44,676 nt of DNA, from positions 1-44,676 of the forward strand of contig JAMPIG010000019.1 in the NCBI GenBank assembly GCA_023662875.1. Reading direction: 5' to 3'. Made by a program: the position numbers and the translations under genes. A model generated the notes under the pieces. It worked only from the letters and a program-made list of their open reading frames with translations, was not told the origin of the DNA and searched no databases. Positions 2,018-10,414 of this stretch are shown in pieces (within the stretch, counting starts at the first letter, position 1; each line of letters begins with the position of its first letter). The DNA comes from Roseburia sp. (GTDB lineage: Bacteria > Bacillota > Clostridia > Lachnospirales > Lachnospiraceae).

Positions 2018-2716
2018 TTATCCGTGTTCAGCTGTCCCTTCCTCCGGAAACAGCCCTATGTAATTCTCAATATAATAATCCGCCTGCTCCAGCTTCCGCT
2101 CCCGGTCATATCGGGAATAGGCGTCCTCCACCGCGCAAACCCGCATCCCCGCGTTCTTCCCCGCCTGGATTCCGGGAACGATATCCTCAAAGACCAGGCA
2201 CTCAGACGGACTTACCCCGAGTTCCTCCGCCACAGCCAGATAGATATCGGGGGCGGGCTTTCCCCGCTGTACGTCGCTGCCGGTCATGATACAGGAGAAG
2301 AAATCCCGGATCCCATGGACGCCGATCACGTTCTCCACCAGCTCCCGGGAATTGCTGGTAGCGATGCCCAGACGGATGCCCCGCCTGCGGCAGCCTTTCA
2401 GGAAGTCCGGGATTCCCGGCTTCAGGGGTACTTCGTTGGCGTACTTGTTCCAGGCCATCCGGTTCCACTCCGCTTTGATTTCCTCCAGCGAATCCGGAAT
2501 CGCGAACGCCTCCTTGAAGTACACCGCCGTCTCGTGAAAGCTCATGCCCTCGATCCGGGCCTGCAGATCCTCCGGAAGAGGGATGCCGAACCGCCCCAGG
2601 TATTCGATATCGATGGCCCGCCAGAGCCACATGGAGTCCACCAGGGAGCCGTCCAGGTCGAAGATTACCGCTCCGATATTCTGGAGCATTGCTTTTGTAT
2701 CTCTTTTCTCCATCAT
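2018..2716 (-). CDS. HAD-IA phosphatase, beta-phosphoglucomutase-like
   Basis: 232 residues. Motif I is AVIFDLDGSLVDS (residues 16-28) with both aspartates, the cap domain follows, motif II is in LGIATSNSRELV, the motif III lysine is in GKPAPDIYL, and motif IV is CLVFEDIVPGIQAG. This layout is typical of PGMB/Gph-type phosphatases or phosphomutases acting on small sugar phosphates in the cytoplasm; the substrate is not predictable. The start at 2716 overlaps the hsdS stop as ATGA, with AAGGAG about 9 nt upstream inside the hsdS end, so translation may be coupled to the restriction-modification operon. An alternative start lies at 2689. Base composition is GC-rich and host-like, unlike hsdS. 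Confidence 0.85.
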   Translation of the reverse strand: MMEKRDTKAMLQNIGAVIFDLDGSLVDSMWLWRAIDIEYLGRFGIPLPEDLQARIEGMSFHETAVYFKEAFAIPDSLEEIKAEWNRMAWNKYANEVPLKPGIPDFLKGCRRRGIRLGIATSNSRELVENVIGVHGIRDFFSCIMTGSDVQRGKPAPDIYLAVAEELGVSPSECLVFEDIVPGIQAGKNAGMRVCAVEDAYSRYDRERKLEQADYYIENYIGLFPEEGTAEHG

Positions 2717-4128
2717 TCCATCCGCTCCTTCAAATAGGCAATAGCCTTATCTTCGTCCTGCTCGATTGCCAGTTCTATGGCACACTTAGCCGCTTCGAGT
2801 AGATTTTTGCTGCTTTGTCGTAATCGGAATGATTCCTTGACACTACTTTTTATTTCTGCCTGTAAATCATCGCTGATGTCTGGAATAGGTATGGACATCA
2901 ATCCATCTTTACTAAAAGCAGTCAATACTGTTCCGGTACATTGCTGTTTAAGAAGCGCCTGAACAGGATCCGACTTGAACAACACGAGCATAGTCTCGCT
3001 ATTAATCTCGTCAGAATCAAGAACAAAGAATCCTGTTGAGCATAAAGCCCCATCATATTCGTCAGTAATCAGGGCGCAGCTTTGAAGAGATCCTTCAATC
3101 GAAGATATAATAATATTTCCTTTATGTACCATCCTTCTTGCTCGTGATGGAAGCTCGTAGCCTGGAGCGATTGTGCAACCGCATATTTCCCCTGCTGTTC
3201 CAATGTTAGCGAGTTCGATGTACTTATATTCGACAGTCTTCTCCGGGTTGAAGTTCTTGTCATGGATATTACACTTTGTCTTAATAGTACTTTTCCCCAA
3301 ATTCCTGATTCGTGCAAGTAATTCATCATACTTCGGTTGATAATACTCCGCATCGATTCGTCCTGCTTCTGAAATATCTTTAAAGGTACGAACAGATACG
3401 CCGCTTGCAGACAGTTTCCATTTATCAAATTCCATTCCTGCTGAGAGTTGTACACTGGCGTTCTCATATTGAACACGTGCATCATTTAACCTTGTAAAGG
3501 CCGTCTCAACAGTTGAACATATCAATTTTTGAAAGGCAGGTCCTAGGACGGGAATTTCTATATGACGAAATTTTGCGGGGCTAAAGTTCGCTTGATTTCC
3601 CACCATGGAAAGCCTCTCTATTTCGGCTCGGCCATAAACAGAGTTTAAATAAGCAACAAGCGTCGCAGAATTTATCAGTTTTTCATCTGGTCTGATTCGA
3701 TACAAATACGAAGCAAAAGCATATTCATAATCTTGAGGAACAAGAGCTGCTTTACCCACATATCTTGGATTTCCGTTCGTGCGGCAAATCAGGACGTCAT
3801 TCTTTTTTAGTTTCAAGGATTCATATGTATCAACATCAATCAGATCACAATATTTTGCCGGGGCATGAATAAAAAAGGAATCAAACTCATTTAAACGCAG
3901 AACGGGATAACCGTTACCGTCTTCGTTTAACCCTTTTGATGTTCCATATTGACTGAATACTTCCACTTCTGAGCCTTTGACACTTTTAAAGCTGGCCTTT
4001 GAGGCGTTGTAATATTCCGCCTCTATCCGGAAGTCGCTGTTATCGACTACTTCAGTTATTGAGACAATTTTTATTTTCAGCCTCTCCAACAATTTTTTAT
4101 ACGCTTCATCATTAGAGAGGCTAATCAA
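2713..4128 (-). CDS. hsdS: Restriction-modification specificity subunit (HsdS)
   Basis: 471 residues in the two-target-recognition-domain layout. Each half begins with an element like DFRIEAEYYN (about residue 31) and GRIDAEYYQPKYDELL (about 256). Each ends in a helical stretch (LNDARVQYENASVQL; LRQSSKNLLEAAKCAIELA) that forms the conserved coiled-coil spacer in type I S subunits. It directs DNA recognition for the methylase-nuclease encoded just upstream (ATGA overlap at 4125-4128). By homology each TRD reads half of a split recognition site, which is not predictable here. Composition is AT-richer than the flanks, consistent with horizontal transfer. Confidence 0.88.
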   Translation of the reverse strand: MISLSNDEAYKKLLERLKIKIVSITEVVDNSDFRIEAEYYNASKASFKSVKGSEVEVFSQYGTSKGLNEDGNGYPVLRLNEFDSFFIHAPAKYCDLIDVDTYESLKLKKNDVLICRTNGNPRYVGKAALVPQDYEYAFASYLYRIRPDEKLINSATLVAYLNSVYGRAEIERLSMVGNQANFSPAKFRHIEIPVLGPAFQKLICSTVETAFTRLNDARVQYENASVQLSAGMEFDKWKLSASGVSVRTFKDISEAGRIDAEYYQPKYDELLARIRNLGKSTIKTKCNIHDKNFNPEKTVEYKYIELANIGTAGEICGCTIAPGYELPSRARRMVHKGNIIISSIEGSLQSCALITDEYDGALCSTGFFVLDSDEINSETMLVLFKSDPVQALLKQQCTGTVLTAFSKDGLMSIPIPDISDDLQAEIKSSVKESFRLRQSSKNLLEAAKCAIELAIEQDEDKAIAYLKERME

Positions 4129-6821
4129 AAAGAAATCTCATTCTCCGGATGAAGGATGCGTTGTAATTCTTCTTCTGATGGAGCAAAGCTTAAATGTTCA
4201 TCATAGGCAAATTTTGCAAAGGCTTCTGCGATGCCGTTCCGGGCATAAATATTGTGAGGATTCCTATTTTTCAACTGCGGGTCTTGGTTGAATAGGTCAT
4301 GCTTCACAAAAATGTGACCATGAGTGTCTTTCACGCGTTCAGACCACTCTCTGACTTCTTCTGCCACAAGATAATATTTCTTCTCCTCCGCAGATAATGC
4401 ATCATACTCTTTTTTTGAAATGATCGGGTTGTTATTGTCACCAAGAATCGGAGCCTCATTATAAAGGCTCTGTTCATCAACATCGAGGGTAAGATATTCA
4501 TCGAGCGAAAGTTCTTCCCTCTTGTCTGAATTTTTCTTTTTATTCTTAAGGACGTAACGGACATTCTTCCTTATCCATTTTCTGTGGCTGTCAAGTTCGC
4601 CATTTTCATCTAAAAAGAGGTCTTTAATAAAGCTTGTGTTTCCGTCCGAATTCATGTGTTCCGTTTTCTTCACACGGCTTTCCGTCTTTATCCTGTAATC
4701 CGATTTCTTTTCTGCTGCTTCATATTCGGCTTTTGTAACTTCCTCGTTATCTGTTTTGCGAATATAAACTTCTACCGTCGTATAAGCGTAGCTTGCCCAC
4801 GACACATAATTTTCTGTAACGTAAATCTTATCACCGGAATTATCCTTGCTTGGTTCCTGCATAGTAGCAAAAAAAATCGGATAATCTATATTTCCGTTTT
4901 CGTCAAAGACAGGTTTAGGACAGATATTTGGATAGCCGCAGTTTTCATCCGTCCATTTCTGAACAAGCAGGACGCTTGTCTTAGTACCTGTGTGCGGCTT
5001 GAACACATTTCCGTGAAGTCCAACAACAGCAAGAAGCCGACATTGTTTCAGGATAAACTCACGAATGTACTTGTCGCTGGAGTTGTTGAATCGTCCTTGC
5101 GGAAGAACAATAGCCATCCTGCCGCCTGGTTTCAGAAAATTCAAATTGCGTTCAATAAACAGAATATCCCTGCCTACTTTATTTTGTTTTTTCCCCTTTG
5201 CATTGATGCTCAATTCATATTGAGACAGTTGCTCCTGGTTATCCAAATCTCCTGCAAAAGGCGGATTTGCCATTAAAACATCAAAATCGAAGAATTTATA
5301 TTGCTCGTATTTTTTTGCTCCTCGATTCCCCTTATATTCCATATTCTCAAGTTTCTTAAAACCATCATGATACTTATCGTCCCAGTTTTTATCCTTAATG
5401 TAATCCTTCTCCCAATTTCTGTAATCAAGAGAATTAAGCTCTATTACGTTTGTATGCCCGTCTCCGGCGATGATATTAAGCATTCTGCCGACACGAACGC
5501 TTTTCTCACTGAAATCAATACCGAACACATTGCTCTGGACATAGTCCGTTTCCGCCTGTGTACGTTTATTCGTTGTAAAAAGGTTAGAAGCCGTAGGGTT
5601 GAGACGTTGCCACACATGAAAGACCGTGTGCATAGGAAAACCACAACTCCCAGCGGCAGTGTCTATCATCTTCTCATCCCGCGTTGGATTGAGCATCTGG
5701 ACACACATATCAATGACATAACGGGGAGTGAAATATTGCCCCATTCCTTCTTTTTGGTTCTGGTTCACAAGATGTTCAAAAGCATCGTCGACTACTTCCA
5801 GATTGGAATTAAACATCCTGACATTCTGCAGTTCTTTCACACAGGATTTGACTGTAGCTTTCTGCATATTAAGGACAGAATCCTCAGGGAACACACCCGG
5901 CCATTTGCATTTTGCATTCTTGAACAAAAGACTGATTCTTTTATAAATATCGTCCGGCGTTTCACTGTCCTTTGCTCTAAATTCTAAAACGCGAAATTCG
6001 CTATCATCAACTTCAGATAGCTTTTTATATGCATACTTCATCTGTGCGGAAATATCATCAGCGTCCTCACTGGACATCTTCTCGTCGTAAAGCTTTGTGA
6101 AAATCAGCTTGAATATCTCTTCAAACGCCTTATCACTGGAATCATTCGCACCGAATCGTTGTTCCACCGCAAGGATTATTTCTTTCAGCGTTTCATTTTG
6201 AAGTCGATCTGACAGCATCAACTGCTTTAAGGTAAAACGGCGGTTTTCAATCCAATCCTTGATCTCCTCCCCTTGACGAGGAAATTTATCAATCGCAAGA
6301 TCATTGTCGAAATCCGGGGCAGCATAGAACTTGAGAAGATTAGCGCCGTTTGCAATTACTCCGACCGGTGCCTTTTTCAGAAGGCAATAGGATTCCATCT
6401 GCTGTCTCGGCGTGGAGGAGTCTTCTCCATAAACAGCATTTTCATCCTTGACCTCTGGTCGTTTGATCTCAATGACCACATTCAGATCTTTCTTGTCCTT
6501 TCCGGAATAAACAGCAATGTCAATCCGATTGTCCCTTATTATTTCGCGCCCGGCATATACAGCCGGAACTTCAAATTCCAGCTGTTCTTTTGCATAGCCA
6601 TACTCTTCAATCAGCCTGTGCGCATACATCTGACGAATGACTTCTTCCGGTTTAAGTTCAAAATAATCACCATCCGCTTTTTTTCCACGGACAATGCATT
6701 CAACACCAGGTTTGCCATCCTTGCGGTTTCTAATGCGTTTATTAAGCCAGTCCTGCTCCTTTGATGAAAATTGCTTTAAATCGCGCAATTCTTCCGGCTT
6801 TAAAATATCTCTAATTTCCAT
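4125..6821 (-). CDS. Fused restriction nuclease-N6-adenine methylase (HsdR_N/HsdM type)
   Basis: 898 residues, much longer than ordinary HsdM (about 500). The N-terminal part resembles the type I R-protein N-domain (HSDR_N_2). It has a PD-(D/E)xK-like core: D101 in NRIDIAVY, then E118 and K120 in VVIEIKRPEV. The N6-adenine methylase follows: GQYFTPR at 361-367, the SAM motif DTAAGSCGF at 387-395, NPPF at 519-522. About 250 further C-terminal residues are charged and of unknown role. No Walker or DEAD helicase motifs are visible and no separate hsdR is in the window. With HsdS it probably forms a self-contained methylating and cutting complex, comparable in layout to BcgI-type enzymes. A promoter-like pair lies at 6845-6872. 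Confidence 0.85.
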   Translation of the reverse strand: MEIRDILKPEELRDLKQFSSKEQDWLNKRIRNRKDGKPGVECIVRGKKADGDYFELKPEEVIRQMYAHRLIEEYGYAKEQLEFEVPAVYAGREIIRDNRIDIAVYSGKDKKDLNVVIEIKRPEVKDENAVYGEDSSTPRQQMESYCLLKKAPVGVIANGANLLKFYAAPDFDNDLAIDKFPRQGEEIKDWIENRRFTLKQLMLSDRLQNETLKEIILAVEQRFGANDSSDKAFEEIFKLIFTKLYDEKMSSEDADDISAQMKYAYKKLSEVDDSEFRVLEFRAKDSETPDDIYKRISLLFKNAKCKWPGVFPEDSVLNMQKATVKSCVKELQNVRMFNSNLEVVDDAFEHLVNQNQKEGMGQYFTPRYVIDMCVQMLNPTRDEKMIDTAAGSCGFPMHTVFHVWQRLNPTASNLFTTNKRTQAETDYVQSNVFGIDFSEKSVRVGRMLNIIAGDGHTNVIELNSLDYRNWEKDYIKDKNWDDKYHDGFKKLENMEYKGNRGAKKYEQYKFFDFDVLMANPPFAGDLDNQEQLSQYELSINAKGKKQNKVGRDILFIERNLNFLKPGGRMAIVLPQGRFNNSSDKYIREFILKQCRLLAVVGLHGNVFKPHTGTKTSVLLVQKWTDENCGYPNICPKPVFDENGNIDYPIFFATMQEPSKDNSGDKIYVTENYVSWASYAYTTVEVYIRKTDNEEVTKAEYEAAEKKSDYRIKTESRVKKTEHMNSDGNTSFIKDLFLDENGELDSHRKWIRKNVRYVLKNKKKNSDKREELSLDEYLTLDVDEQSLYNEAPILGDNNNPIISKKEYDALSAEEKKYYLVAEEVREWSERVKDTHGHIFVKHDLFNQDPQLKNRNPHNIYARNGIAEAFAKFAYDEHLSFAPSEEELQRILHPENEISF

Positions 6822-6844
6822 AGTTTTCTCCCAATCTTACAAAT

Positions 6845-6872
6845 ATCATAACTATATCAATTTTTCAATCAA
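6845..6872 (-). promoter_or_regulatory. Putative promoter of the restriction-modification operon
   Basis: On the minus strand TTGATT (6872-6867) and TATGAT (6850-6845) are 16 bp apart, about 25 nt upstream of the start at 6821, in very AT-rich DNA. It would drive the fused methylase, hsdS and possibly the overlapping HAD gene. Confidence 0.45.
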
Positions 6873-6948
6873 GTCACGCTCTCGTTATTCTGAATTTTCC
6901 TTAACTGTTCGATTCTTCCTGCATATTTGGGTAACTTCGCAGGTATCC

Positions 6949-7530
6949 CTACAACAAATTGGGATTTAGCTTATACTGATACACTATCTCATCACTATCT
7001 TCTCCAAACAAATACTTATAGCTCGCTAAATCTTGTTCGCTTTTTCCTGCAATTTCTCCGAAACTTTTTACAAATTTCGAAAAGCTACTTTCTTCTTCTC
7101 CAATTTTAACAGCGCCTAGATTTTCAAATACATGCTGACTGTGTAAATTAGCGGAAGAAATACGAATTAGAAAATATTCAATTTGCTTTTCTTCACATAC
7201 TTTTTTAGCAATTAATCGAACAGCCCTCGGTGCTATTCCTCTATTTCTTTTATTTTCAACCAAATCAATCCCTATCTCCGGTGTATTACTATCTGAATCT
7301 TGCAATTCAATACTGCCACAATAATCTCCTTTTTTTATAAATACAGAAAACATACCCTCTGAATGGTTTAGTGTCTGTTCCCACATCATGTCTTTTGATC
7401 GTGGATTCAAGTATAATGTTGTTTCTCCATTTAACTGTCTATGTAATTCTACATAATCTTTTCTATCCTCATCAGATAGCGTACATATTATCAATTCGTC
7501 GTCTGTAGCAAAGATTTCTCGTTTCGTCAC
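6949..7530 (-). CDS. GNAT-family N-acetyltransferase
   Basis: 193 residues with the RimJ/RimL-like GNAT pattern: an N-terminal strand (ELIICTLSDEDRKDYVELH), a central PEIGIDLVENKRNRGIAPRAVRL resembling the acetyl-CoA binding loop (R-x-x-G-I-A), and C-terminal SANLHSQHVFENLGAV. The last is typical of acetyltransferases that modify amines or N-termini. The substrate is unknown. This is one of the most AT-rich genes in the window and it sits between dinD and the restriction-modification operon, so it is probably cargo of the same acquired segment. A ribosome site (AAGGTG) lies about 6 nt before the ATG. Confidence 0.8.
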   Translation of the reverse strand: MTKREIFATDDELIICTLSDEDRKDYVELHRQLNGETTLYLNPRSKDMMWEQTLNHSEGMFSVFIKKGDYCGSIELQDSDSNTPEIGIDLVENKRNRGIAPRAVRLIAKKVCEEKQIEYFLIRISSANLHSQHVFENLGAVKIGEEESSFSKFVKSFGEIAGKSEQDLASYKYLFGEDSDEIVYQYKLNPNLL

Positions 7531-7614
7531 TCAAATCACCTTCTTTAGCGTAAAGCCACAAATATCACAATCATTCTTTTATGCGAAAATTTTCAAACTG
7601 TTTCCGATAACGCA

Positions 7615-8475
7615 TTATTCATCAAGCATTATTGTCCCTTTTTTTGCCTTCGCTTTCAGTCTTGCCATTTGTTCTCTCTCAATCTCTTGAATGCTTTTCT
7701 CCGGTTTTGGCAAATCCTCTGGCATGGTTCCTCCAATTTTCTCAATCGCTGTCCGCACCTCTTTGCCAACATTATAATGAATGCTTGTCGCGGCATCCGC
7801 ACCTTGTATGCTATCCTTTCGCAGTTTTTCCTCCGTCTGTGAAATGCGGAAAAGATTGGCAATAAGTTCTGTGCTTCCCATATAATCAAGAATCTTCTGC
7901 CCAATCTGAAGATTTTTTCTTGCGTGAATATCTTCCACATCCAGTCCGCCATAAAGTCCCATATATCCTGCATTTTGAAATATAGCAAATTCCTCATTGG
8001 TAATCACTCCGGCATCATGTGCTGTTTCCGCTAAAAGCTGATTCCACTGTTTGATGTCCCCACGAACAACAAGACGCCTTCTATCTTCATCTAACTGATT
8101 AAAATGTTCAGCAACTTCTTGACGATACGTCTGTATAGCAAAATAAGTCTGCCCTAAAGCAATTACTTCTTTTCTTGGATCCCCGTTTTGAACAATCAAG
8201 TAACAAGCATATCTTGATAATTCATAATCTTTTATCGGCTTGTTCGTAACGCCGGCATCTACGATTTTGCTGACCTCAGCAAAATCGTCAAGCACATCAT
8301 GTCCGCTATTTTCACAGGCAATCATGGCTTTTTCAATGACCTTGCTAAAATTTCTCCACTGCGTATATTCCAAAGCATTCGCCAGTTCTCTTGCACTCCA
8401 AAACTCCAAACCGTCTTCTCTGATATGCTTTATGTCTTCAAATTTCTTATATTCCTTTGCGTTCAGTCCTATCAT
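7615..8475 (-). CDS. dinD: DNA-damage-inducible protein D homologue (DinD)
   Basis: 286 residues, close to E. coli DinD (about 275). Recognisable segments are the BRO-N-like start DGLEFWSARELANALEYTQW (about residues 22-41), YELSRYACYLIVQNGDPRK, ALGQTYFAIQTYRQE, and a C-terminal half with NAGYMGLYGG and DAATSIHYNVGKEVR. In E. coli, DinD is an SOS gene whose product modulates RecA filaments; that role is only inferred here. The start has GGAGG 8 nt upstream. A dyad overlaps a promoter-like sequence (8502-8540). It sits beside the restriction-modification genes and is AT-rich, like the rest of the island. Confidence 0.88.
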   Translation of the reverse strand: MIGLNAKEYKKFEDIKHIREDGLEFWSARELANALEYTQWRNFSKVIEKAMIACENSGHDVLDDFAEVSKIVDAGVTNKPIKDYELSRYACYLIVQNGDPRKEVIALGQTYFAIQTYRQEVAEHFNQLDEDRRRLVVRGDIKQWNQLLAETAHDAGVITNEEFAIFQNAGYMGLYGGLDVEDIHARKNLQIGQKILDYMGSTELIANLFRISQTEEKLRKDSIQGADAATSIHYNVGKEVRTAIEKIGGTMPEDLPKPEKSIQEIEREQMARLKAKAKKGTIMLDE

Positions 8476-8501
8476 GCAATCAACCTCCGATTATTTAGAA
8501 G

Positions 8502-8540
8502 ATACTAGATTTTCAAATTGGGCAGACAACGTCTGTCCAA
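8502..8540 (-). promoter_or_regulatory. Putative dinD promoter with overlapping dyad operator
   Basis: Minus-strand TTGTCT (8529-8524) and TAGTAT (8507-8502) are 16 bp apart. A 23-bp interrupted palindrome (8518-8540, arms TTGG.CAGAC and GTCTG.CCAA around AAC) covers the -35. It does not match the Gram-positive LexA box (CGAAC-N4-GTTCG). It could be an operator or simply a hairpin. Confidence 0.4.
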
Positions 8541-8661
8541 CCCATATCACAGCAAAGCATAAGGCAATCGCATAACGCTGTCTCATCTCTTCAAACGTTT
8601 CAGAGATTTCTACCTTCTCTTTTATTATACCCGTTTTCCGCAGGAATATCAATGCAAAAAA

Positions 8662-9408
8662 CTACTCTTTTCCGTCCGCGGCGATCTCCGCTGCGATCTC
8701 CCTCCCCACCGCCTCCCGAAGCCTCCCCAGCTCTTCCTCCGTCAGCGGCCGGTATTCCCCCGGCTGCAGGGAGTCGTCCAGCGCAATCCCGCCGAAGGAT
8801 GTCCGCTTCAGCTCGTCCACGCCGTTTCCCACCGCCTGCAGCATCCGTTTTACCTGATGGAATTTTCCCTCGTGGATCGTCAGCAGGATTCTTCCGTCCT
8901 CCAGCTTGCGCGCCTTCGCCGACAGAGTGGGACGCTCCTCCCCAATCTCCACGCCCTGCTCCAGCTGACAAATCTCCTGTTCCCCGAGAGGCTGCCGGGG
9001 CGTAACGAGATAAGTTTTCTCCACATGGTTTCGAGGAGAAAGCAGTTTATGAGCTAAGCCGCCGTCGTTCGTCAGGAGTAAAAGTCCTTCCGTATCCTTG
9101 TCGAGACGTCCGGCGGGGAAAATATCCCGCCGCCTGTCCTCCGGCCGCAGCAGCTCCACTACGGTTCCCGCCGTATTGTCCCGAACCGCGGAGACAACAC
9201 CTTTTGGCTTGTTCAGCATATAGTAAACATATTTTTCCCCGGTAACCTCCCGTCCCTGTACGCAGACCCTGTCCCGGTCTTCCTCCACAGAGTAATCCGC
9301 CTTTTTTACGGGATTTCCGTTTACCGTGACCTGCCCCCGCCGGATCAGCTCCTTTACCTGGCTGCGGGTTCCCTGATTCCGTTGACACAAAAATTTATCC
9401 AGACGCAT
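8662..9408 (-). CDS. rsuA: RsuA-type 16S rRNA pseudouridine synthase
   Basis: 248 residues from the ATG at 9408 (MRLDKFLCQRN), where the S4 RNA-binding domain normally begins; AAGGG lies about 12 nt upstream. The S4 domain covers residues 1-60. The catalytic motif GRLDKDTEGLLLLTNDG contains the active aspartate. The C-terminal EGKFHQVKRMLQAVGN is characteristic of RsuA rather than RluB, suggesting modification equivalent to U516 of 16S rRNA; that target is inferred. The frame is open well upstream of 9408, but that stretch lies under the opposite-strand ylbJ-like gene and does not look like this family. Confidence 0.85.
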   Translation of the reverse strand: MRLDKFLCQRNQGTRSQVKELIRRGQVTVNGNPVKKADYSVEEDRDRVCVQGREVTGEKYVYYMLNKPKGVVSAVRDNTAGTVVELLRPEDRRRDIFPAGRLDKDTEGLLLLTNDGGLAHKLLSPRNHVEKTYLVTPRQPLGEQEICQLEQGVEIGEERPTLSAKARKLEDGRILLTIHEGKFHQVKRMLQAVGNGVDELKRTSFGGIALDDSLQPGEYRPLTEEELGRLREAVGREIAAEIAADGKE

Positions 9409-9463
9409 ATGCGAAAAAAATCCCTTCATATATTGTAAAAAGGCCTGCCCGGAGCGTTCTCCC

Positions 9464-10414
9464 ATGAAGCTGATTGCCCTTTTTCTGATCGTAATGACTT
9501 TCTGTATCCTGACCAACTCTTCCCTGAGCCTGACGTACGCGACTCTGGGGCTGGAGCTCTGGTTCCAGAAGATGATACCGGCTCTTCTGCCCTTTATGAT
9601 CCTTTCCGGGATCCTGGTGCGCCTGGGGCTGACGGAAAAGATGAGCATGGTTCTCTACCCTGTCCTGGGGCCGGTCTACCGGGTGCGGAAAAACGTGATC
9701 TACTGTATTATGCTTGGCTTTCTCTGCGGCTTCCCCATGGGCGCGAAGGTGACCGCCGACCTGTTGGAGCGGGATCTGCTGACCCGGGACGAGGGGGAAT
9801 ATCTTCTGGCCTTCTGCAACAATATCGGCCCGGTCTATTTCTGCAGCTTTGTACTGCCCCTGCTGGGCCGCAGGCTGGTGCTACCTTATCTCTTCGGCAT
9901 GTACGGGATTCCTCTGCTCTACGGGCTGCTCCTGCGCTATACCTTCTTTCGGAACCGGTTGTATACAGAGAAGGAGATAAGACGCATCTCCCGGAAACCG
10001 GAATTACTTTGCTGTGAGCGGACAGGAAGCAAAACCGTCCTTCGCTTCCTGTCCGCGGCGGACGAATCCATCCGCGCCTCCCTGGCCAGTATTCTGACCC
10101 TGGGCGGCTATATGATCCTGTTTAACTTATTTAACCTCCTGCCTCATCTCCTGCTCCGCCGGGAGCCCTTGCTGGCGGCTCCCCTGCTGGAAATTTCGGG
10201 CGGACTCTCCCTGCTGGGCGGAAGGCTCCCCCTGTACAGTCTTCTCGTCCTGTCCTTCGGCGGACTCTCCTGCGTCGCCCAGACCTACAGCTGTATCCGG
10301 AACACCGGCCTTTCCGTCGGCAGCTACCTGAAGCATAAGGTGATATTGACCCTGCTGACCGCCGCCTTTTATCTCTGCTGGTTTCTGGCGGCTCCGTCCA
10401 CGTTTCTTCTCTGA
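9464..10414 (+). CDS. YlbJ-like sporulation integral membrane protein (nucleoside-recognition domain)
   Basis: 316 residues, very hydrophobic, about eight membrane segments. Features of YlbJ and related nucleoside-recognition (Gate) proteins are visible: ALLPFMILSGILVRLG, LGFLCGFPMGAKVTADLLE, LAFCNNIGPVYFCSFVLP and GGYMILFNLFNLLPHLL. B. subtilis YlbJ is a sigma-E-dependent sporulation protein of about 400 residues; this one is shorter. It is one of only two plus-strand genes, divergent from rsuA with 55 bp between them. Its last 46 bp overlap the 3' end of the convergent amidase gene. GGAG lies 9 nt before the ATG. Confidence 0.8.
   Translation: MKLIALFLIVMTFCILTNSSLSLTYATLGLELWFQKMIPALLPFMILSGILVRLGLTEKMSMVLYPVLGPVYRVRKNVIYCIMLGFLCGFPMGAKVTADLLERDLLTRDEGEYLLAFCNNIGPVYFCSFVLPLLGRRLVLPYLFGMYGIPLLYGLLLRYTFFRNRLYTEKEIRRISRKPELLCCERTGSKTVLRFLSAADESIRASLASILTLGGYMILFNLFNLLPHLLLRREPLLAAPLLEISGGLSLLGGRLPLYSLLVLSFGGLSCVAQTYSCIRNTGLSVGSYLKHKVILTLLTAAFYLCWFLAAPSTFLL

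What the first reader, a model, noticed from the sequence alone, without database searches (positions are those of the whole stretch)
2713..6821. Restriction-modification system with fused nuclease-methylase and a separate S subunit, no translocase
Seen: an 898-residue protein with a PD-(D/E)xK-like N-domain (D101, E118, K120), N6-adenine methylase motifs (GQYFTPR, DTAAGSCGF, NPPF) and about 250 extra C-terminal residues, overlapping an hsdS gene by ATGA. No helicase motifs and no hsdR are present. Known: type I enzymes need an HsdR translocase, while BcgI-type IIB enzymes fuse R and M and use a separate S subunit. Inference: a compact enzyme that cuts near its site without translocation. The N-domain being HsdR-derived and the long C-terminal extension make it unlike textbook BcgI.
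Basis: partly seen in the sequence, partly recalled or inferred. Interest (0 to 1): 0.72.

Follow-up and report, generated by a model that had tools for sequence, protein, structure and literature searches.

The report
Two-gene motorless restriction-modification enzyme
A small, apparently acquired block of genes in a bacterial chromosome encodes a DNA-cutting and DNA-marking enzyme in one protein plus a separate target-reading protein; it resembles the known enzyme BsaXI, lacks the motor of classical Type I enzymes, and carries an unusual extra arm.

Summary
In detail: an 898-residue nuclease-methylase (4125-6821, minus) is followed by a 471-residue S subunit (2713-4128), with no hsdR. The N-domain is Pfam HSDR_N_2. 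The four residues that BsaXI needs for cutting (E73, D90, E105, K107) have counterparts, E84, D101, E118 and K120, present in 32 of 32 aligned family rows. BsaXI, a characterised Type IIB enzyme, is the best PDB match by sequence and among the solved structures searched by fold. The pair lies in a low-GC ~5.9-kb island (dinD, acetyltransferase, RM, S) between two genes whose homologues adjoin in a same-genus genome, so the island looks complete and holds no hsdR. Best reading: a motorless, Type IIB-like (RM)2S enzyme. What remains new: this clade's ~165-residue insert is a different, predicted strand-and-hairpin arm at BsaXI's paddle position, with a repeated EY motif whose copy number varies, nested within a ~660-residue short-form family; there is no knob. 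One homologue has S fused to RM. Cleavage and recognition site are untested. Verdict: new variant of a known kind.

The parts
4125..6821 (-). RM subunit, 898 aa: N-terminal nuclease + helical connector + N6-adenine methylase + insert + C-terminal segment
   Evidence: ORF; Pfam; PDB match RM.BsaXI
6327..6650 (-). nuclease domain, residues 58-165 (HSDR_N_2); E84, D101, E118, K120
   Evidence: 32/32 rows; [quoted passage not shown] BsaXI catalytic set
4920..5798 (-). N6-adenine methylase domain, residues 342-634 (GQYFTPR, DTAAGSCGF, NPPF)
4317..4811 (-). insert of this clade, about residues 671-835; strands alternating with short helices that carry an EY motif three times
   Evidence: absent from ~660-aa homologues; repeat motif; model pLDDT 78-91 by blocks over 671-820 but under 65 on both sides of it
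2713..4128 (-). S (specificity) subunit, 471 aa, TTG start
   Evidence: Methylase_S; EcoKI HsdS and other S subunits in the PDB
3502..3933 (-). first target recognition half, about residues 66-209
   Evidence: of 11 relatives compared, well kept only in L007 and L008 (144/170 and 135/170 over residues 31-200)
2809..3273 (-). second target recognition half, about residues 286-440
   Evidence: PDB S-subunit matches 290-432; well kept in L007, L008, L011, L012, L014
4125..4128 (-). 4-base RM/S overlap, TTGA
   Evidence: sequence; same -4 spacing in L007 and L008
6949..7530 (-). GNAT acetyltransferase gene in the same island
   Evidence: GC 0.335
7615..8475 (-). dinD-like gene (Bro-N) in the same island
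   Evidence: NCBIfam PRK11525 398.5 bits, cut-off 242; PADLOC PDC-S13
2717..8661 (.). low-GC genomic island, about 5.9 kb, between a pseudouridine synthase gene (8662-9648) and a HAD hydrolase gene (2018-2716)
   Evidence: GC 0.34-0.41 inside, 0.57-0.58 in the two flanking genes; flanking families by Pfam; their homologues adjoin in same-genus genome G022

Best explanation
It is a self-contained, ATP-independent Type II restriction-modification enzyme of the Type IIB (BcgI/BsaXI-like) kind: two RM subunits and one S subunit. S reads a bipartite site with two target recognition domains. Each RM subunit uses SAM to methylate an adenine in its half-site; if neither strand is methylated, the N-terminal PD-(D/E)xK domains (E84, D101, E118, K120) cut the flanking DNA at a fixed short distance, most likely on both sides and with transient pairing of nuclease domains. 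The 165-residue arm is proposed to serve the role of BsaXI's paddle: to contact flanking DNA, S or a second enzyme. Shown: domains, gene order, conserved candidate catalytic residues, bounded island, fold match. Inferred: stoichiometry, methylation, cleavage, cut position, arm function.
Against: No activity data. The genome has three HsdR-type helicase genes on other contigs, and 11 of 14 searched host genomes of relatives have such genes somewhere, so borrowing in trans is not formally excluded. I identified no counterpart of BsaXI's paddle residues D816 and E823. PADLOC files the protein as a Type I methylase (658 bits). The model is moderate (mean pLDDT 75, pTM 0.58) and the blocks holding E84 and D101 average 70 and 61. 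L053 has no S in its 17.6-kb locus. The genes were not compared with BcgI, BaeI or CspCI.
Confidence: 0.8

Rival explanations
1. It is a Type I-like methylase whose N-domain is auxiliary; restriction needs an HsdR supplied in trans from another locus of the genome.
For: Three HsdR-type helicases elsewhere in the genome; such genes in 11 of 14 searched host genomes of relatives; PADLOC label MTase_I.
Against: No PF18766 match in 3 of 14 host genomes (draft or metagenome assemblies, completeness not stated) nor in 13 of 13 mobile records with the gene, several of them fragments; candidate catalytic set in 32/32 rows; RM-S fusion homologue; BsaXI is described as working without a translocase.
Confidence: 0.08
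2. It is a motorless RM + S enzyme but cuts on one side only, like most single-chain Type IIG enzymes, not on both sides.
For: Cut geometry cannot be read from sequence; DrdV and BpuSI (IIG) also match the fold.
Against: Separate two-TRD S implies two RM subunits, one per half-site; the five RM + S enzymes in the table passage that I saw (BaeI, BcgI, CspCI, BsaXI, NgoAVIII) cut on both sides (PMC3874165, passages).
Confidence: 0.17
3. It is a fragment of a MADS defence system (MAD2 methylase + MAD5 specificity subunit) that needs other mad genes.
For: Best NCBIfam hits are MAD2 (277 bits) and MAD5 (97 bits); PADLOC also lists mad2 (98 bits) and mad5 (92 bits).
Against: Both far below the NCBIfam cut-offs (720, 400); no mad gene among the eight neighbouring ORFs scanned (two, six); island bounded.
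Confidence: 0.04
4. It is a decayed or regulatory methylase whose nuclease is dead, used for epigenetic marking.
For: An engineered HsdR-nuclease/HsdM fusion with S methylated but did not restrict (PMC6158711, passages).
Against: All four candidate catalytic residues intact; purifying selection on the nuclease.
Confidence: 0.06

Closest known systems
RM.BsaXI + S.BsaXI (Type IIB, PDB 8w0p, 8w2p, 8w2q)
   Same: HSDR_N_2 nuclease, helical connector, N6-adenine methylase in one chain; separate two-TRD S; same four residues; similar length (916 vs 898)
   Different: separate clade (100/100 support); about 19-23% identity in the fold alignments; no knob; different insert in the paddle position, predicted strand-rich instead of a double helix
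BcgI-type RM + S Type IIB enzymes (BcgI, BaeI, CspCI; from review passages)
   Same: RM fusion + separate S, no motor
   Different: no sequence of these was compared here; the ~165-residue insert is extra relative to the ~660-aa short forms of this family
MADS MAD2 + MAD5
   Same: same domain order; the MAD2 model aligns residues 54-695
   Different: scores below cut-off; no other mad gene found beside it; the MAD2 model has only 654 positions
Type I HsdM/HsdS (EcoKI, EcoR124I)
   Same: methylase and S relatives in the PDB
   Different: own nuclease domain; no HsdR in the island

Membership tests
Type IIB RM + S | nuclease and methylase fused, S separate | tested here: met
Type IIB RM + S | E-D-E-K PD-(D/E)xK site needed for cutting | tested here: met
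   residues present, E84, D101, E118, K120, 32/32 rows; BsaXI mutants; activity itself not tested
Type IIB RM + S | S with two target recognition domains | tested here: met
   PDB S-subunit matches to 102-224 and 290-432; halves vary independently between relatives
Type IIB RM + S | no ATP-dependent translocase | tested here: met
   no PF18766 match on C62; none found next to relatives; empty-site comparison
Type IIB RM + S | double-strand cuts on both sides of a bipartite site at fixed distance | not testable with these tools
   needs purified enzyme
Type IIB RM + S | SAM and Mg2+ but no ATP | not testable with these tools
   needs purified enzyme
BsaXI subfamily | same clade as BsaXI | tested here: not met
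   BsaXI groups with L090 and L092, 100/100, apart from the window clade
BsaXI subfamily | knob between strands 7 and 8 | tested here: not met
   only a short linker (about 20-25 residues) there; judged from alignment and one moderate model
BsaXI subfamily | double-helix paddle after strand 8 | tested here: inconclusive
   an insert is there but the model shows strands and short helices; insert not modelled alone
Type I R-M | HsdR with motor encoded with it | tested here: not met
   no hsdR on the contig or in the bounded island; HsdR-type genes lie on other contigs
MADS | MAD2 and MAD5 above curated cut-offs | tested here: not met
   277 vs 720 and 97 vs 400 bits
MADS | further mad genes in the locus | tested here: not met
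   two island ORFs and six flanking ORFs have no mad hit; the rest of the window was not scanned

The most novel reading that the evidence does not exclude
RM + S enzymes have acquired different 'arms' independently at two loops around methylase strand 8: knob and helical paddle (BsaXI), a coiled-coil-like stretch in the knob position (seen in L042), and here a strand-rich arm in the paddle position that grows by duplicating a ~30-residue EY-motif hairpin (one EY module fewer in L014, L015 and L017, three in the window, about five by eye in L011). The arm would set where the nuclease reaches or would tie two DNA-bound complexes together, so hairpin number could tune cutting.
Probability: 0.3. 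Interest if true: 0.6.

Novelty: new variant of a known kind. Interest (0 to 1): 0.42.

Why it matters
How Type IIB enzymes make two exact double-strand breaks is open; the BsaXI authors weigh three mechanisms and leave the paddle's role unsettled (PMC11997821, section read). This family offers natural comparisons: the same core without any arm (~660 aa), with a strand-rich arm of differing hairpin number, with an extra stretch in another loop (L042), and fused to S in one chain (L059). It is also a natural form of the HsdR-nuclease/HsdM fusion that was engineered without gaining restriction (PMC6158711, passages). PADLOC and NCBIfam place this protein nearest to Type I methylase and MADS methylase models, so its nuclease is easily missed.

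Tried and rejected
MADS membership: rejected, scores below cut-offs and no other mad genes among eight neighbouring ORFs. A near-MAD2 protein (L073, 654 bits) was followed up; by the look of its ORFs its neighbourhood is not a MADS operon (no family scan was run on it apart from one ORF), and an integrase-core ORF lies between it and an S-like ORF.

Element ends: no convincing direct or inverted repeats at the island borders; promoter and terminator counts within one standard deviation of shuffles. A paper search by domain names found only a GmrSD paper; searches listed BsaXI, Type I and Type II papers, none describing this family in the titles and abstract starts seen (open-access library only). 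Haloferax HVO_A0006 (PMC4389544, passages) is described as a Type IIG N-terminal fragment and does not settle the question. The rows shown by the two fold searches give no separate match for the insert; that is not evidence of a new fold.

The flanking pseudouridine synthase match in G022 (55% identity) contains three stop codons; I take these to lie upstream of the true start, since the ORF called in the window begins well before the S4 domain, but did not prove it. The G022 locus was read by eye at the junction.

Rows dropped: L020 and L043 (one genome, RM split into two ORFs) were left out of alignments; L052, L016, L079 and L102 (duplicates) were left out of the first tree, and 15 further rows out of the second, for distance or truncation. 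Other proteins over 800 aa elsewhere in the trees (L075, L083, L085, L086, L088) were not examined for their C-terminal parts, nor were L061 and L082 beyond weak family hits. The repeat motif was found by eye in the window before it was counted, so its shuffle values (12 proteins: 3 copies, p 0.001 in the window; no match to the strict pattern in L007 and L014; L017 p 0.23) describe, not test. dS is saturated, so dN/dS is only indicative; several segments gave no value.

Papers: PMC11997821, outline and sections 4, 18, 25, 29 and 31; PMC3874165, PMC6158711, PMC9159934 and PMC4389544, passages only; the rest, listings. Names of genes given only from the look of a sequence are from recall where no call is cited.

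Full report
Observation. RM is 898 aa and S 471 aa, on the minus strand. Pfam finds HSDR_N_2 (58-165), N6_Mtase (342-634) and Eco57I in RM, and Methylase_S in S. The overlap between the genes is TTGA, since S starts with TTG; the two closest relatives, L007 and L008, also overlap by 4 bases.

Nuclease site. The PDB search puts RM.BsaXI first (profile search). In that alignment BsaXI residues E73, D90, E105 and K107 fall on E84, D101, E118 and K120. Alanine at each of those four BsaXI positions inactivated cleavage (PMC11997821, section 25 read), and its authors call them absolutely conserved in the larger Type IIB family (section 31 read). In my set of the window and 31 relatives, two pairs of near-duplicates included, the four residues are present in 32 of 32 rows. 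In a wider set of 31 rows gathered with the MAD2 model (it again holds the window, a copy of L012, and one protein twice), 21 rows have the N-domain: 17 keep all four, L068 (entered twice, also as L079) and L085 lack the glutamate matching E84, and L084 has D-x-K for E-x-K; the other 10 are truncated or lack the domain. [quoted passage not shown] dN/dS over the nuclease is 0.05-0.06 against L007, L008 and L009, with dS near saturation.

No motor. The window is the whole of contig C62 (44,676 bases), so only 2.7 kb lie beyond S on that side. But the island can be bounded: in a same-genus genome (G022) homologues of the flanking pseudouridine synthase gene (55% identity) and HAD gene (77% identity) adjoin each other (families). 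In the window dinD, an acetyltransferase, RM and S sit between them, at GC 0.34-0.41 against 0.57-0.58 in the two flanking genes. The island therefore seems complete and has no hsdR. Three HsdR-type genes lie on other contigs. tblastn with pieces of these three (1007-1070 aa) finds nothing in 20 sequences (window, 14 relatives' loci, five further loci), and in 14 virus, plasmid and phage loci only one short match, which falls on the RM nuclease domain itself in L062. A search for the HsdR helicase family PF18766 in 27 genomes or records found it in 11; three genomes that carry the RM gene (G300, G301, G303; assemblies of unstated completeness) and all 13 mobile records searched had none. PF18766 is one HsdR marker; other helicase families were not searched.

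S subunit. S matches EcoKI HsdS and other S subunits in two separate stretches. Of 11 relatives compared, L007 and L008 share both recognition halves with the window; L011, L012 and L014 share mainly the second (95, 86 and 85 of 155) while the first is at 19-23%; the others share neither well (L019's S is short). This is the module exchange expected of a two-TRD S subunit. Among 31 loci, an S gene found by profile lies directly beside RM in 28 of the 29 that can show a separate next gene; L053 has none in its 17.6 kb, L018 is cut by its contig end, and L059 (plasmid pAQ6 of Picosynechococcus) has nuclease, methylase and S in one chain.

The C-terminal region. Aligned with ~660-residue homologues, the window protein has an insert of about 165 residues between DYPIFFATMQ...KIY and HGHIFVKHDLF...IAEAF. 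In BsaXI the knob is inserted between strands 7 and 8 and the paddle extends from strand 8 (section 18 read); by the profile alignment I take 'YPIFMA' as that strand. The insert here is thus at the paddle position and there is no knob. The model predicts residues 671-820 best of all (block means 78-91): long strands alternating with short helices; but the stretches joining it to the core are poor, so its placement is unsure. The helices carry a repeated motif, [VILFT][STD]xx[EQ][YF], three times in the window; L011 has further copies, and L014, L015 and L017 lack the first hairpin. In the tree of the methylase core the proteins with this insert are one clade (13 rows, 100/99) nested among short forms; BsaXI is apart with L090 and L092 (100/100), and L042, L061 and L082 are a third clade of long proteins (100/99) (first tree). 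In L042 an extra, coiled-coil-like stretch lies before 'YPIF'. The different positions suggest separate gains; this is inference.

Spread. 14 relatives came from the GTDB contig scan, by record title in Bacillota, Treponema and Bacteroidales; 10 from viral contigs; others, mostly weaker, on plasmids and phages. In 299 genomes of the window's family 6 had a match at E 1e-50 or better, the window's own included. The nearest relatives of the window are titled Selenomonas and Oscillospiraceae, which with the island points to horizontal transfer.

Interpretation. What was measured fits a Type IIB-like enzyme: a trimmed-down, fixed-cutting relative of Type I, as the review describes BcgI (PMC3874165, passages). 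I give 0.8 to a motorless RM + S restriction enzyme of this kind; two-sided cutting I hold at about 0.6 (my estimate). The remaining novelty is the arm and its clade.

Noticed in passing
G000:C68 (L068 1546-3741 and 3765-5201): The same genome has a second, divergent RM-like protein (731 aa) followed by a gene whose place matches an S family hit (L006); it keeps D and ExK but not the glutamate matching E84.
   Followed up: partly
L039 6583-7356, L051 13334-14110, L058 13590-14414, L060 11407-12198: Several short-form RM + S pairs are followed by a third gene of about 260 aa with alike N-termini (by eye). The three scanned (L051, L058, L060) have no Pfam or NCBIfam family over its cut-off (one weak PADLOC PDC-S25 hit).
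   Followed up: partly
L055 13289-14227: A short-form RM + S pair on a viral contig is followed by an AbiJ homologue (PADLOC 270 bits).
   Followed up: no
window 7615-8475; L017 14321-15202; L014 5820-6833: Bro-N-related genes recur beside these RM + S pairs: dinD-like in the window, Bro-N with Fic in L017, RhuM (with only a weak Bro-N hit) in L014.
   Followed up: no
L059 7815-11540: Plasmid pAQ6 of Picosynechococcus sp. PCC 7002 encodes the same core fused to S, annotated only as N-6 DNA methylase.
   Followed up: partly
L020 and L043: The RM gene of what appears to be one genome (equal contig length and ORFs) is split into two ORFs (93 and 848 aa); the record is titled Bacteroidales although the genome is listed in the window's own family.
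   Followed up: no
L019 9587-10327: The S gene is cut short (246 aa) next to a serine-recombinase gene.
   Followed up: partly
L073: A protein close to the MADS MAD2 model (654 bits, cut-off 720) keeps the full E-D-E-K set, so proteins named MADS methylase may also carry a nuclease.
   Followed up: partly
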